From an uncultured beta proteobacterium (lineage in GTDB: Bacteria; Pseudomonadota; Gammaproteobacteria; Burkholderiales; Burkholderiaceae_C), in NCBI GenBank assembly GCA_903823025.1, contig CAIJRK010000058.1, positions 1 to 64,000 of the forward strand: a stretch of DNA of 64,000 bases, in the 5' to 3' direction. The position numbers and the translations under genes are program-made. The notes under the pieces are model-generated. The model saw only the letters and a program-made list of their open reading frames with translations. It had not been told where the DNA came from and searched no databases. This document shows positions 10,504-41,894 of this stretch, in pieces (position 1 is the stretch's first letter; each line of letters begins with the position of its first letter).

Positions 10504-12651
10504 ATGAGTATTTTTTTGACCTCTGAAAACTTAAAAACCCTGTCGCTGGCCGCCTTTGATCAAGTGGTGAAGGCGACCTCCGGCTTTCGTTCGCGCCCTG
10601 GCCAGCGCGAAATGGCGCAGCGTATTGCCAGCAACTTATCTGGCGTGACGCTGGGCGAGCACCCCAATCCCGGCAAAGCCATCACCGTCATTCAGGCAGG
10701 AACGGGCGTGGGCAAGTCGGCGGCTTATTTGTCCACCACTGTGGCCTTGGCGCTCGCGCTCAAAACCCGGGTCGTCATCTCCACCGCCACCGTTGCGCTG
10801 CAAGAGCAACTCATGACCAAGGACTTACCCGCGCTGGCTGCCGTGCTGGAAACGCCCTTTGTTTACGCCTTGGCCAAAGGGCGCGGTCGCTACGTGTGCA
10901 AGCTCAAACTGGAACGGCTGGTGGGCTTGGACGGCGAAGCTGAAGAAGATTTATTTGGGGTGGATGAAGACCTGCCACCACCACGCGCCGCATTCGCCAA
11001 ACAGTTACAAGGAGAAGACCCCGAAGAGCGTCGCATGAAGTTGTATGACTCATTGGCGTCGGCTTTGGTTGGTGGCAAATGGGATGGCGATCGCGACAAT
11101 CTGGCCGAGCAGCCTGAAGCGCGTGATTGGTCATCGGTGGCGGCGGAGCGGCACACCTGCACGGCCCGGCACTGCCCACGCTTTCGGGACTGCAGCTACT
11201 ACAACGCACGCACCCAACTGGCCGAGGCCCAAGTCATTGTGGCGAATCACGATCTGGTATTGGCCTCGTTAGGCCGAAAAGCGTTGCCCGAGTTGGACAA
11301 CTGCCTGATTGTGTTTGACGAAGGCCATCATTTACCTGCCGTCGCGCTGGATCAGTTCTCCAGTGCCATGGATTTATCAAGTCTGCGCTGGCTGGATAAA
11401 TTGCCGAAAACCTTGCAAGAGGTCAGTGAAAAAATTCACGTTCAATTGGCGCAAGATGTGAGCACACTGGCGCAACAACTCAAAGTCGCCCTAGTTAATG
11501 TGGGGCGCATGGTCATGGAGTTGCTCACCGGTTATGACGGCGTTTACCGCTTCAAAAACGGTGTGCTGCCCGATGCGTTTATCGACCCAATCAGCTTGAT
11601 TCACGGCCATGCCTCAGGCATCTCCAAAGCACTGGAAGCCTTGGGCGCTGAGGTGAAGCTGCTAGCCAAAGAAGACCCCGAGCAAGCGGCGAGCTGTTCG
11701 CTGATGTACGCCAAACTGGGGCAGTTGGCCCCCAAGCTGGGCAGTGTGATCGACACCAGTAGCTTATTGTTGGAACACGGCCCGCAACCACTGGCCAAGT
11801 GGCTCAAGTCCGACACCAGTTCGGGGCTGGTCTTTTTGACCGCTCATGCCTGCCCCATCGTACCGGGCGATTTGTTGCGCCAAGCGTTGTGGAGCGAGGT
11901 GCGCGGGGCGGTAATTACGTCAGCATCGTTGACCAGTTGCGGCAGTTTTGATTATTTTTTGCATGAATCCGGTCTGGTCAACAACGCCCAGGTTTCAACC
12001 CTTGAAGTCGAAAGCCCTTTTAATTACAGCACCCAAGGCCAACTGATCGTGGTGGAAACTGAGGCTGATCCCAAAAATGCCGAGGCCTACACCCGTGAGA
12101 TGGTCACGGAGTTGATGTCGGATTTAAGCCGGGTTGAACACGGTGCGCTGGTTTTGTTTACCTCGCGGGCGCAGATGAAGGTGGCAGTGGAGGCGTTAAG
12201 TAGCGCCTTGCAAGATGCCGTTTTAGTGCAGGGCCAAATGGCGCGGGGCCGCTTGCTAGCCACGCATCAAGCGCGGATTGAGGCCGGGTTGCCTTCCATT
12301 ATTTTTGGTCTGCAGTCGTTTGGCGAAGGCCTGGATTTGCCGGGTAAATTATGTGAAACCGTGTTTATCACCAAGTTGCCTTTCAGCCCACCGTCTGACC
12401 CGGTGGAAGAAGCCCGTTCTGAGTGGCTCAAAAGCGTAGGGCGCGATCCGTTTTCTGAATTGGTAGTGCCCGCGACCGGAATCAAACTGCTGCAGTGGAC
12501 AGGCCGGGCGATTCGTACCGAGGATGATCAGGCCACCGTGATTTGCTACGACCGGCGTTTGCTGCGACAAAGTTACGGACGGCGCATGTTGCAGGGGTTG
12601 CCGCGTTATGCGGTGTCGCGTCGAGTTGGAGGCGTGGCCTTGGCGGTTTAA
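10504..12651 (+). CDS. dinG: ATP-dependent DNA helicase, DinG/XPD type
   Basis: A 715-residue superfamily 2 helicase of the DinG/YoaA group, iron-sulfur 5'-3' helicases that resolve structured DNA and R-loops. It has a Walker A variant AGTGVGKSAAY (about residue 64), the Walker B box FDEGHH, and the C-terminal motif QWTGRAIRTEDD. Cysteines consistent with a 4Fe-4S cluster lie between motifs Ia and II (RGRYVC; HTCTARHC; FRDC). No good Shine-Dalgarno sequence precedes the ATG. It stands alone; the structured RNA-like element begins within 20 bp of its stop codon. Confidence 0.88.
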   Translation: MSIFLTSENLKTLSLAAFDQVVKATSGFRSRPGQREMAQRIASNLSGVTLGEHPNPGKAITVIQAGTGVGKSAAYLSTTVALALALKTRVVISTATVALQEQLMTKDLPALAAVLETPFVYALAKGRGRYVCKLKLERLVGLDGEAEEDLFGVDEDLPPPRAAFAKQLQGEDPEERRMKLYDSLASALVGGKWDGDRDNLAEQPEARDWSSVAAERHTCTARHCPRFRDCSYYNARTQLAEAQVIVANHDLVLASLGRKALPELDNCLIVFDEGHHLPAVALDQFSSAMDLSSLRWLDKLPKTLQEVSEKIHVQLAQDVSTLAQQLKVALVNVGRMVMELLTGYDGVYRFKNGVLPDAFIDPISLIHGHASGISKALEALGAEVKLLAKEDPEQAASCSLMYAKLGQLAPKLGSVIDTSSLLLEHGPQPLAKWLKSDTSSGLVFLTAHACPIVPGDLLRQALWSEVRGAVITSASLTSCGSFDYFLHESGLVNNAQVSTLEVESPFNYSTQGQLIVVETEADPKNAEAYTREMVTELMSDLSRVEHGALVLFTSRAQMKVAVEALSSALQDAVLVQGQMARGRLLATHQARIEAGLPSIIFGLQSFGEGLDLPGKLCETVFITKLPFSPPSDPVEEARSEWLKSVGRDPFSELVVPATGIKLLQWTGRAIRTEDDQATVICYDRRLLRQSYGRRMLQGLPRYAVSRRVGGVALAV

Positions 12652-12660
12652 AGAGACACG

Positions 12661-13091
12661 TCCATCACCCGTCCTCAAGGGCGGGGCTTGTGAAACGAAA
12701 GTTCCACAAGCAAGATTAACCAACGACAGCGGCTAAAACTAAAGCGTTAGTCACCGCACGTTGGTAGCCGGTCATTAAGATACCCCCGCGAATGCTTCTT
12801 CAGCTCGCTACCCTGCAAGACAGTCATCCTGCTGACTGCCGTCGTTAAAGGCGCCGAATATTTGTTCGCGACTCGCAGAGTGAAAACCGGTTGTTGACAT
12901 CTCCGAAGGGAGCGAGGCTACGAATAGCTTTATCGCCAGGCTTTGACAAGCAAGCGTCGCACGACCCGGCAGGTTGAAAGCCTGCCCCGTATTTAACGGG
13001 TGGCAAAAATGGACGCGACAGGTACGCCACCAAAGCAAGGAATGCCCCGCATTCCACGCTCTACCTCCCTGGCCTAAAGGCCGGGTCTCAC
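12661..13091 (-). ncRNA. Candidate orphan HEARO/OMEGA-like structured RNA element
   Basis: This 430-bp gap has no believable protein, but read on the minus strand it is a near-continuous series of stem-loops. They include 13068-13085 (GGCC stem, TTTA loop), 13039-13055 (7 bp, GGG loop), 12999-13004 with 13026-13031, 12986-13000, 12968-12986, 12821-12838, 12763-12768 with 12807-12812, and 12719-12725 with 12759-12765, nested around a small CTAA/TTAG hairpin. Two adjacent stems close the 3' side, at 12687-12710 (10 bp, wobble only in the minus-strand RNA) and 12668-12685. The 5' boundary abuts GTGA (13088-13091). Boundary, order and the segment TGACCGGCTACCAACG agree, from memory, with HEARO RNAs, the guide RNAs of IscB. 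No IscB gene follows; dinG converges instead. An IS200/IS605-type end is the alternative. Confidence 0.5.
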
Positions 13092-13102
13092 GCGTAATTT
13101 CG

Positions 13103-13411
13103 ATGAGAACGATTTTTAAGTTTGTTGTGCAAGTCGTGATGCTGCTGGCTGGACTGGTTTTTTTAGCCAGTTTAGTAGTGGCAGCAATGTTTGTACTGGC
13201 CGTTTGGTTGCTACAGGCCTTATGGGCCAAGTTAACGGGGCAGCCGGTGCGGCCTTGGACTTTTTCCATGAACCGGCAGGCAATGTGGAGCCGTTTTTAT
13301 AGCGGGCAGACGCAAGGTCGTCCACCCAAGCGGGATGATACGAATGTGATTGACGTGGAGATCAAAGAAGTGAAAGAGGTCAAAGAGGTGAAGCCACCGC
13401 GTGACGATTGA
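13103..13411 (+). CDS. Small single-pass membrane protein of unknown function
   Basis: A 102-residue protein with one long hydrophobic segment (about residues 5-40), a basic middle region and a hydrophilic tail with the repeat KEVKEVKEVK. The start at 13103 places the membrane segment at the N-terminus and avoids reading through the structured element upstream. I do not recognise the family beyond a general resemblance to small hypothetical proteins of Comamonadaceae. It converges on rlmE with a 29-bp gap. The putative RNA element begins only 11 bp upstream of its ATG, so promoter sequence may have been displaced. Confidence 0.6.
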   Translation: MRTIFKFVVQVVMLLAGLVFLASLVVAAMFVLAVWLLQALWAKLTGQPVRPWTFSMNRQAMWSRFYSGQTQGRPPKRDDTNVIDVEIKEVKEVKEVKPPRDD

Positions 13412-39617: not shown

Positions 39618-41894
39618 TCAAGTTCGACGGCGTGGCTTTTTCGCTTTGTCTTTGCCCTTGACTGAGGCTTGTCGGGCCGCCGCTTTCACACCTTGAACCG
39701 CTGACCTGGGGGTGCGGGGTAAAGGCTCTGCTATTTGGCGGGTGGCGCGCTTGGCAGGCGTTTTATCGGGCTGATCACTGGTGTTTGCGTGGCCCCTGCC
39801 CTCGCGTAAAACGCCTTTGTCCTTCATGGCACGAGAAGTTAAATTCTCACCTTCATGAATCAGCCGGAAATCAATACGGCGCCCATCCAGATCAACCCGG
39901 CTGACCTGCACGCGCACCCGAGTGCCGATGGCATAACGCATACCTGTGCGTTCACCGCGCAAGTCTTGGTGCATTTCATCAAACCGGAAGTAGTCGCCGC
40001 CCAACTCGGTGATGTGTACCAGCCCTTCAACGTACATCTCGTCCAGCGTCACAAAAATACCGAAACTCGTTGCCGAGCTGACCATGCCGTCATACGCTTC
40101 GCCCAGATGCTCATGCATATATTTGCACTTGAGCCACGCCTCAACGTCTCGACTGGCCTCATCAGCCCGGCGTTCATTGGCGCTACAGTGCAGGCCAGCG
40201 GCTTGCCAAGCTTGGGTTTCAGGGCTTTGCTTTTTAGGCTTTTGGCCTGGTTCAGCCACGCGGGCGGCTAATCCTTTTTCAAGTCGGCGTGACAGCTTGG
40301 CGTGGGCTTCACCCGGCGTTGGCAAGACCGGCAATTGATATTTGGTCTTGGCCAAGATTGCCTTGATAACACGGTGCACCAACAAATCCGGATAACGCCG
40401 GATGGGACTGGTGAAATGGGTGTAGGCATCAAACGCCAAACCAAAGTGACCGTTGTTAACCGGGGTGTAAATGGCCTGCTGCATGGAGCGCAACAGCATG
40501 GAATGAATTTGCTGCGCGTCTGGCCGGTCTTTAGTGGCGTTAGCAATGGCCTGAAACTCAGCCGTGACCGGGTCATCACTGATCGTCAGCCCCAAGCCTG
40601 TTGCTTTGAGGTAGTTACGCAAAATCTCAATCTTTTCAGGGGTCGGGCCTTCATGCACGCGAAACAGACCGGCGTGTTTGCTTTGGGCGATAAAGTCGGC
40701 ACTGCACACATTGGCCGCCAACATGGCCTCTTCAATCAGCTTATGGGCATCGTTACGGGTGCGTGGCACGATTTTCTCGATGCGCCCAGCCTCGTCGCAC
40801 ACAATTTGCGTTTCAACCGTTTCAAAGTCCACGGCGCCCCGACGAGCACGCGATTTTTGTAATGCTTGGTAAACACCTTGAAGATTCAGTAAATTCGGCA
40901 CACGCTCTTTGCGCTTTAAGGCCTCGGGACCGTGTGGATCCGCCAAAATTGCCGCAACTTCGTTGTAGGTAAAACGCGCGTGACTCCACATCACCGCAGG
41001 GTAAAACTGATAGGCCGATACGTCGCCCTCTTCAGTCACGACCATGTCACACACCATGCACAGACGCTCAACTTCAGGATTCAGTGAACACAGGCCATTA
41101 GACAATTTTTCAGGCAGCATCGGAATCACGCGACGCGGAAAGTACACGCTGGTGGCTCGGTCGTAGGCGTCAATATCAATCGCAGAACCGGTCTCGACAT
41201 AGTGACTGACATCGGCAATAGCAACCAGCAAACGCCAACCTTTCACGGCCGCTTTACCCCTGCCGATTTTGGTCGGTTCGCAATACACCGCATCATCGAA
41301 ATCGCGCGCATCTTCACCATCAATCGTGACCAGCGCAATGTCTGTCAAATCAACACGGCGCTTTTTATCTTGTGCACGCACAGTGTCGGGCAGCGTGCGG
41401 GCCAAGGCAATGCAAGCATCTGAAAACTCATGCGGCACGCTGAATTTGCGCACTGCAATTTCAATCTCCATACCGGGGTCATCCACCTCGCCTAGTATTT
41501 CTTTGATACGACCAACCGGCTGACCATATAAAGCGGGGACTTCTGTTAACTCAACCACAACCACTTGGTCGGGCTTGGCCGAGCCTGTGGCTATTTTGGG
41601 AATGAGTACATCTTGACCGTAGCGCTTATCTTCGGGCACAACAATCCAGATGCCGCTTTCTTGCAACAAGCGGCCAATGATGGGCTGCGCGGCACGCTCA
41701 ATAATTTCGAGCACGCGACCTTCGGGCCGACCCTTGCGGTCACTGCGCACAATGCGCACCTTGACGCGGTCTTTGTGCAGCACCGCACGCATCTCGTTAG
41801 GAGGTAAGTAGATATCGGATTGGCCGTCATCGCGTATCACGAATCCGTGACCATCACGGTGGCCTTGAACTGTGCCTTCAATCTCGTCCAGCAA
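39618..41894 (-). CDS. rnr: Ribonuclease R
   Basis: A 758-residue 3'-5' exoribonuclease that degrades structured RNA. Cold-shock domains (GTVQGHRDGHGFVIRDDG), the RNB catalytic domain with VTIDGEDARDFDDAVYC (metal-binding Asp cluster) and TSPIRRYPDLLVHR, a C-terminal S1 domain (GMVSSATSFGIFVTLDEM) and a basic Lys/Arg tail are visible. The N-terminal helix-turn-helix of E. coli RNase R is absent, as in some Comamonadaceae. The start is uncertain: the TTG at 41894 lacks a Shine-Dalgarno sequence, whereas AGGAAAGAGAG (41939-41929) sits 7 nt before an in-frame ATC at 41921, and no ATG or GTG exists before the upstream stop. Confidence 0.93.
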   Translation of the reverse strand: MLDEIEGTVQGHRDGHGFVIRDDGQSDIYLPPNEMRAVLHKDRVKVRIVRSDRKGRPEGRVLEIIERAAQPIIGRLLQESGIWIVVPEDKRYGQDVLIPKIATGSAKPDQVVVVELTEVPALYGQPVGRIKEILGEVDDPGMEIEIAVRKFSVPHEFSDACIALARTLPDTVRAQDKKRRVDLTDIALVTIDGEDARDFDDAVYCEPTKIGRGKAAVKGWRLLVAIADVSHYVETGSAIDIDAYDRATSVYFPRRVIPMLPEKLSNGLCSLNPEVERLCMVCDMVVTEEGDVSAYQFYPAVMWSHARFTYNEVAAILADPHGPEALKRKERVPNLLNLQGVYQALQKSRARRGAVDFETVETQIVCDEAGRIEKIVPRTRNDAHKLIEEAMLAANVCSADFIAQSKHAGLFRVHEGPTPEKIEILRNYLKATGLGLTISDDPVTAEFQAIANATKDRPDAQQIHSMLLRSMQQAIYTPVNNGHFGLAFDAYTHFTSPIRRYPDLLVHRVIKAILAKTKYQLPVLPTPGEAHAKLSRRLEKGLAARVAEPGQKPKKQSPETQAWQAAGLHCSANERRADEASRDVEAWLKCKYMHEHLGEAYDGMVSSATSFGIFVTLDEMYVEGLVHITELGGDYFRFDEMHQDLRGERTGMRYAIGTRVRVQVSRVDLDGRRIDFRLIHEGENLTSRAMKDKGVLREGRGHANTSDQPDKTPAKRATRQIAEPLPRTPRSAVQGVKAAARQASVKGKDKAKKPRRRT

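What the first reader, a model, noticed from the sequence alone, without database searches (positions are those of the whole stretch)
12661..13091. Orphan HEARO/OMEGA-like structured RNA element without an IscB gene
Seen: 430 bp without a credible protein but with about ten well-formed stems when read on the minus strand. Several compensate only on that strand: the 12687-12710 stem has a G-U pair in the minus-strand RNA and an A/C mismatch in the plus-strand RNA. The element begins at a GTGA and ends at two adjacent GC-rich stems. Recalled, not computed: HEARO RNAs (guide RNAs of IscB, the ancestor of Cas9) have this size, multi-stem layout, an integration site next to ATGA/GTGA, and core segments resembling TGACCGGCTACC and the TTTAGTTTTAGCCGC region. 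IscB normally follows such an RNA on the same strand, but here dinG converges, so the element would be a solo, nuclease-free copy that might be served in trans.
Basis: partly seen in the sequence, partly recalled or inferred. Interest (0 to 1): 0.78.

Follow-up and report, generated by a model that had tools for sequence, protein, structure and literature searches.

The report
Nuclease-less IscB guide-RNA mini-transposon
This 443-base stretch is the remains of a mobile element that carried the guide RNA of IscB, the ancestor of Cas9, but has lost the nuclease gene; its relatives very often sit exactly in front of a host gene's start codon.

Summary
The HEARO (IscB omega-RNA) model covers window 12660-12918 on the PLUS strand (33.6 bits, E 5e-5; cut-off 83). 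The same genome holds a 74%-identical copy that passes the cut-off and is followed by iscB; the window's right end matches the iscB 3' end plus terminal hairpin of another copy (86%). The element, 12660-13102, is a deletion derivative: omega-RNA, a few iscB codons, right end. An intact IscB lies elsewhere in the genome. Fifteen congeneric dinG loci lack the element. The copy looks worn.

Relatives show a broader pattern: these elements lie in sense just 5' of a host start codon, the RTGA (or ATGG) that fits the known target-adjacent motifs. 25 of 38 mapped insertions abut a called gene start, against 3% of control sites. The left flank, which becomes the guide, often holds a ribosome-binding site (18 of 38; not in the window). 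In eight elements the iscB stop overlaps the host start. I did not find this pattern in the papers I could reach; the founding papers were not held.

The parts
10504..12651 (+). dinG, the co-directional gene upstream; its end and the 8-nt spacer would supply the guide
   Evidence: ORF; next to the downstream ORF in 15 of 17 congeneric loci
12644..12659 (+). putative guide segment of the omega-RNA (about 16 nt just outside the element); holds the dinG stop codon
   Evidence: left boundary shared with other copies; guide length is recalled knowledge of IscB. No SD motif by the test
12660..12918 (+). HEARO / IscB omega-RNA scaffold, partly degenerate (3 of 8 pairs of the first stem non-standard; terminal GTCAA reads GTCCA)
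   Evidence: Rfam RF02033 33.6 bits, E 5.2e-5, model 1-211; 74% identical over 258 nt to the C41 copy that scores 90.2 bits
12919..12992 (+). 3' part of the omega-RNA region and a hairpin at 12968-12986; the joint of the deletion that removed the iscB body lies at or near its end
   Evidence: comparison with the C41/C80/C21 layout; fold
12993..13018 (+). relic of about the last nine iscB codons, stop TGA changed to CGA
   Evidence: 86% identity of 12993-13107 to the iscB 3' end plus right end in C56
13019..13102 (+). right end of the element with subterminal hairpins (terminal one at 13068-13085), ending CACGCGTAATTTCG
   Evidence: shared with C56, C12, C62, C36, C21
13103..13106 (+). ATGA: presumed transposition target and TAM, and start codon of the next gene
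   Evidence: TAMs NTGA, NTG and NTGG of IsrB orthologues in PMC9581776 (passages)
13103..13411 (+). downstream gene, 102-aa probable small membrane protein conserved in the genus
   Evidence: homologues in 17 other genomes of the genus, 42-62% identical; no Pfam family

Best explanation
The element is a nuclease-less deletion derivative of an IscB-encoding IS200/IS605-type transposon. [quoted passage not shown] Inferred: it was inserted at ATGA by a Y1 transposase acting in trans; it is transcribed from the dinG side, so that the host sequence just upstream becomes the guide; an IscB made elsewhere in the genome could load this RNA and cut the empty allele (dinG end plus ATGA), favouring retention of the element. 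Because the left end is mutated and the model score is low, this copy is somewhat more likely to be a decaying relic than a working guide. The confidence given is for the identity, not for present activity.
For: Rfam HEARO on the plus strand only. Homology to copies with iscB in the same genome: 74% over 258 nt to C41, which scores 90.2 bits and is followed by iscB, and 86% over 118 nt to the iscB end and right end in C56. A hairpin like these right ends follows an open Y1-transposase frame on C33. The element is absent from all 15 congeneric loci in which dinG and the ORF were both found. Open IscB frame on C21 with RRXRR and HNH domains. Comparable elements with omega-RNA and no significant iscB match in two other genomes of the order: G357 (329 bp, 58.2 bits) and G305 (383 bp, 92.4 bits, over the cut-off).
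Against: The score is below the Rfam gathering threshold (33.6 against 83). Three of eight pairs of the first stem are non-standard and the terminal GTCAA is GTCCA, so function is doubtful. No transcript data. The iscB of the closest (C41) subfamily is cut by contig ends, so its intactness cannot be seen. Other derivatives have lost part of the omega-RNA (C80 and C86 in this genome; the 380-bp element in G395), so keeping the scaffold is not a rule.
Confidence: 0.88

Rival explanations
1. One reading: a HEARO RNA on the minus strand, starting at GTGA near 13091 and ending near 12661, with dinG converging.
For: The minus strand has the lower absolute folding energy (-171.8 against -151.5 kcal/mol).
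Against: z-scores are alike on both strands; the HEARO model hits only plus; iscB-bearing copies are collinear on plus.
Confidence: 0.03
2. Same origin, but a dead relic: a MITE-like IS200/IS605 remnant whose omega-RNA no longer does anything. This differs from the best explanation only in present activity. I raised it slightly after one search showed that one supposed solo element (G395) has a truncated omega-RNA.
For: Mutated left end, 33.6 bits, broken pairs in the first stem; other copies in this genome are plain relics (C12, C62, C36, C23); omega-RNA truncated in C80, C86 and the G395 element.
Against: Here the omega-RNA is kept nearly full length while the coding part is gone, and this anatomy recurs in G357 and G305, the latter with an omega-RNA over the cut-off.
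Confidence: 0.55
3. A cis-regulatory RNA or leader of the downstream gene, unrelated to IscB or domesticated from it.
For: It lies directly upstream of the start codon in sense.
Against: Absent from 15 of 15 congeneric dinG-ORF junctions; homologous to iscB elements at unrelated genes.
Confidence: 0.04

Closest known systems
HEARO RNA / IscB omega-RNA (Rfam RF02033)
   Same: Full-length covariance match on plus, same left boundary as other copies, RTGA at the far end, homologous copies with iscB in the same genome
   Different: No iscB; score below the curated cut-off; some pairs broken
IscB / IsrB-encoding IS200/IS605 transposons (ISC)
   Same: Hairpins near both ends, RTGA at the right end, iscB C-terminal codons before the right end
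   Different: Nuclease body deleted; no transposase inside
Standalone omega-RNAs in genomes that have IscB elsewhere (Altae-Tran et al. 2021; recalled, paper not held)
   Same: omega-RNA locus without a nuclease gene in a genome with IscB elsewhere
   Different: Both ends of the element and the deletion are visible here, and the place is a start codon; expression unknown
Non-autonomous IS200/IS605 derivatives (MITE/PATE/REP-like; recalled)
   Same: Small element with both ends and no transposase
   Different: Keeps a nearly complete guide-RNA scaffold

Membership tests
HEARO / IscB omega-RNA | Homology to the RNA covariance model over its length | tested here: met
   RF02033 model 1-211, E 5.2e-5, but 33.6 bits against a curated 83; bridge: 74% identity to the C41 copy at 90.2 bits
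HEARO / IscB omega-RNA | iscB/isrB ORF directly downstream on the same strand | tested here: not met
   Only about nine terminal codons remain; tblastn of two IscBs finds nothing significant in the window. I therefore call it a derivative of such an element, not a complete one
HEARO / IscB omega-RNA | Location next to ATGA/GTGA (recalled from Weinberg et al. 2009, paper not held) | tested here: met
   ATGA at 13103-13106 right after the right end
HEARO / IscB omega-RNA | Transcribed RNA whose 5' end guides IscB | not testable with these tools
   No RNA-seq or biochemistry
IS200/IS605 transposon | Subterminal hairpins near both ends | tested here: met
   Hairpins 12668-12685 and 13068-13085; same type in other copies
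IS200/IS605 transposon | Own Y1 (TnpA) transposase | tested here: not met
   None in the element; four Y1 matches elsewhere in the genome, one of them over the whole domain in an open frame
IS200/IS605 transposon | Insertion without target duplication, seen against an empty site | tested here: inconclusive
   Relatives lack the element, but their spacers differ too much to align the exact junction

The most novel reading that the evidence does not exclude
IscB/HEARO elements are start-codon transposons. They come to rest in sense between a host gene's ribosome-binding site and its start codon, because the motif RTG(A/G) is at once the transposition target, the nuclease's target-adjacent motif, the host start codon and, in part of the family, the place where the iscB stop codon forms (ATGA or TGATG overlap). 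This puts the guide, which lies outside the element, under a host promoter, and in that part of the family can keep the host gene translated by coupling to iscB. Nuclease-less omega-RNA elements such as the one in the window obey the same rule and may live off IscB made elsewhere.
Probability: 0.55. Interest if true: 0.75.

Novelty: new member of a known kind. Interest (0 to 1): 0.52.

Why it matters
The element itself is a modest find: a guide-RNA element that has lost its nuclease, with both ends mapped. The wider pattern matters more. If IscB elements sit at start codons as a rule, this would explain why their motif is RTGA, how a guide that lies outside the element gets transcribed, and perhaps how a 1.6-1.8-kb insertion in front of genes such as obg or lepB is tolerated. 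It also gives a simple test of whether guide transcription or gene tolerance decides where these relatives of Cas9 settle.

Tried and rejected
Minus-strand HEARO: rejected. Rfam at curated thresholds found only four tRNAs in the window. A second right-end motif match in the window (41293-41307, minus) is chance: it lies inside an RNase R-like ORF (name from my own reading of the sequence). HEARO is rare in this family: 4 of 250 genomes, own included; the IscB N-terminal domain is in 13 of 399 genomes of the order, 10 over the cut-off.

Results against the start-codon reading. In one search, of 38 insertions with a usable left flank 25 were classed as start, 9 as coding (C21, L037, L055, L088, L092, L097, L098, L149, window) and 4 as noncoding (L087, L095, L158, L160); two more elements (L082, L089) were left out for want of a left flank. 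Pfam supports a gene from this codon for L037, L055, L087, L098 and L149, and C21 and the window I also take as real starts on other grounds; L095 and L158 are followed by ORFs of 13 and 18 aa and are real exceptions; L092, L160 and also L161 (classed as start, 150 aa, no Pfam match) are doubtful; for L090 the true start may lie 12 nt downstream. In the own genome 5 of 7 right ends precede an ORF of 100 aa or more; C36 and C23 do not. Of 19 plasmid IscB elements (18 regions that I picked from the 40 hits listed, 85 records matching in all, plus a second iscB in one region), 6 have the annotated CDS start exactly at the RTG after the right end and 1 three bases off in frame; in the other 12 it is not so or I could not place the right end. 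Right ends were placed by eye on the conserved terminal motif, not by ORF, except L173 and L180, where the annotated start guided me. Copies in one genome are not fully independent, so the p-values are optimistic.

Coupling is at most part of the story: of 50 junctions, 7 show an overlap of 1 or 4 nt and an eighth does so by annotation; in 17 (15 of G268, 2 of G395) the stop is 27 nt before the start, a distance beyond the about 20 nt at which PMC10666635 (abstract and outline seen) reports coupling almost lost; C21 has 26 nt and 13 others 50-93 nt. The window itself has no SD motif in its left flank by the test, and no GGAG in its right end.

I first counted the 380-bp element of G395 (L161) as a solo omega-RNA; one search shows it keeps 74 aa of iscB-like sequence from its base 123 on and has a truncated omega-RNA, so I dropped it.

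Literature searches whose listings showed nothing on start-codon insertion (lists are capped; only listings seen). Weinberg 2009, Altae-Tran 2021, Kapitonov 2016 and a 2023 Nature paper on guide RNAs and transposon spread (title recalled) were not held, so an earlier description cannot be excluded.

Full report
What is there. The stretch 12660-13102 is a 443-bp element between dinG (10504-12651, plus) and a 102-aa ORF that starts at 13103. Rfam at curated thresholds gives nothing here, but the permissive scan gives HEARO RF02033 on the plus strand, 12660-12918, 33.6 bits, E 5.2e-5, whole model. That scan, which covered both strands of 12400-13400, lists no HEARO match on minus. The two strands fold about equally well against shuffles (z -2.86 plus, -2.66 minus), so a strand argument from one G-U pair does not hold.

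Relation to IscB. The own genome (G000, 3.47 Mb, 89 contigs, unnamed) has five HEARO matches, two of them over the cut-off: C21 (99.9 bits) and C41 (90.2 bits). It has RRXRR (IscB N-terminal) matches on C21, C41, C80 (two pieces) and, barely over the cut-off, C31. The C21 gene is an open frame of 467-470 aa with RRXRR and HNH domains. The window's omega-RNA is 74% identical over 258 nt to C41, whose iscB runs off the contig end; its right part is 86% identical over 118 nt to the iscB 3' end and right end at the start of contig C56. So the window element is a full element minus the iscB body, with a relic of about nine last codons. The scaffold is worn: three of eight pairs in the first stem are non-standard and the terminal GTCAA reads GTCCA.

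Insertion. A protein search with the downstream ORF matched 18 of 40 genomes, the own one included. Of the 17 other loci, 15 have dinG next to the ORF and no element; the distance between the aligned parts is 54-203 nt. The element is therefore a lineage-specific insertion. In the window the dinG stop is followed by AGAGACAC, the element, and ATGAGAACG. The left flank fails my SD test, so I cannot say that an SD was parted from the start codon here.

Other nuclease-less elements. In ten genomes searched, 42 HEARO matches were found, 21 of them in G268. Elements with both ends, an omega-RNA and no significant iscB match occur in G357 (329 bp, omega-RNA 58.2 bits, followed by an Rrf2-family gene start) and G305 (383 bp, 92.4 bits, followed by a 66-aa ORF without Pfam match). 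G268 has elements of 596 and 779 bp with only pieces of iscB. IscB N-terminal domains in frames of 360 aa or more exist elsewhere in G357, G305 and G268. A 380-bp element in G395 has lost part of the omega-RNA and keeps an iscB tail.

Start codons. In 40 elements whose right end I placed by its conserved terminal motif, the next bases are ATGA in 35, ATGG in 4 and GTGA in 1. An ORF caller run on the empty sites put this codon at a gene start in 25 of the 38 with a usable left flank; 9 were classed as coding and 4 as noncoding. Of 2564 control sites (the same motif in the same flanks, both strands) 81 were starts (3.2%); among starts plus noncoding sites the control fraction is 31% against 25 of 29. 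Binomial p is about 1e-28 and 1e-9, optimistic because copies within one genome are related. Of 36 ORFs that begin at this codon and were scanned, 26 match a Pfam family at E up to 0.001, and in many the domain begins at residue 3-8 from profile position 1 (Obg, class-V aminotransferase, Rrf2, HAD, response regulator, flavodoxin, epimerase, MFS), which shows that the starts are real. An SD-like motif lies in the left flank in 18 of 38, against 15% of 2844 control sites (p 2e-6). The nearest upstream gene called is on the same strand in 23 of 38, in 14 of these within 40 nt, as in operons.

Overlap with iscB. The iscB stop codon shares one base with the host start in L036, L038, L163, L164 and L165, and lies inside RTGA in L084 and L037; annotation shows a one-base overlap for the first iscB in L166. 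These are the overlap types (ATGA, TGATG) described for translational coupling in PMC6728339 (passages) and PMC10666635 (abstract). In 17 elements the gap is 27 nt, in C21 26 nt and in 13 others 50-93 nt, where coupling is doubtful. Known TAMs fit: IsrB orthologues use NTGA, NTG or NTGG (PMC9581776, passages).

Reading. The guide of the HEARO RNA is its 5' spacer region (PMC9755519, passages), and in these elements that is outside the left boundary. A promoter inside the element cannot transcribe it. A place in sense inside a host transcription unit solves this, and start codons are a common RTGA in such places. Whether the transposase prefers such sites or selection keeps only these is open. 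If tolerance alone mattered, a place between SD and start would be a poor one, which argues for guide transcription, for an RBS supplied by the right end (GGAG in L037, L038, L084), or for coupling. This part is inference.

Verdict. The window element is ordinary in kind, a nuclease-less derivative of an IscB transposon, probably decaying. The start-codon pattern behind it is strong in the elements I mapped from this order, weaker in the plasmid sample (7 of 19), and I could not check it against the founding papers.

Noticed in passing
window 12974-13411 (+): The reading frame of the downstream gene is open back through the element's right end to a TTG at 12974, giving a 145-aa ORF; C21 shows the same kind of in-frame extension. 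An annotation pipeline could call a false N-terminal extension here.
   Followed up: partly
L023 (G000:C33:12596-12958): An open Y1 transposase frame is followed by a hairpin like the IscB right ends and then ATTTTGATAA, so this TnpA may mobilise the iscB elements in trans.
   Followed up: partly
L088, L089, L090, L097 (G395): A subgroup of elements abuts ATGG instead of ATGA, alongside ATGA elements in the same genome; an IsrB of a Burkholderiales bacterium is reported to use NTGG (PMC9581776).
   Followed up: partly
L171 and L180 (plasmids): iscB elements sit between parA and parB, at the parB start codon, in a Deinococcus and a Trichormus plasmid.
   Followed up: no
G268 contigs C20-C22: One 2.4-Mb genome holds 21 HEARO matches, several elements with the same length of 1588 bp, in front of genes such as a signal peptidase, a class-V aminotransferase and a sigma-54 response regulator; this suggests recent activity.
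   Followed up: partly
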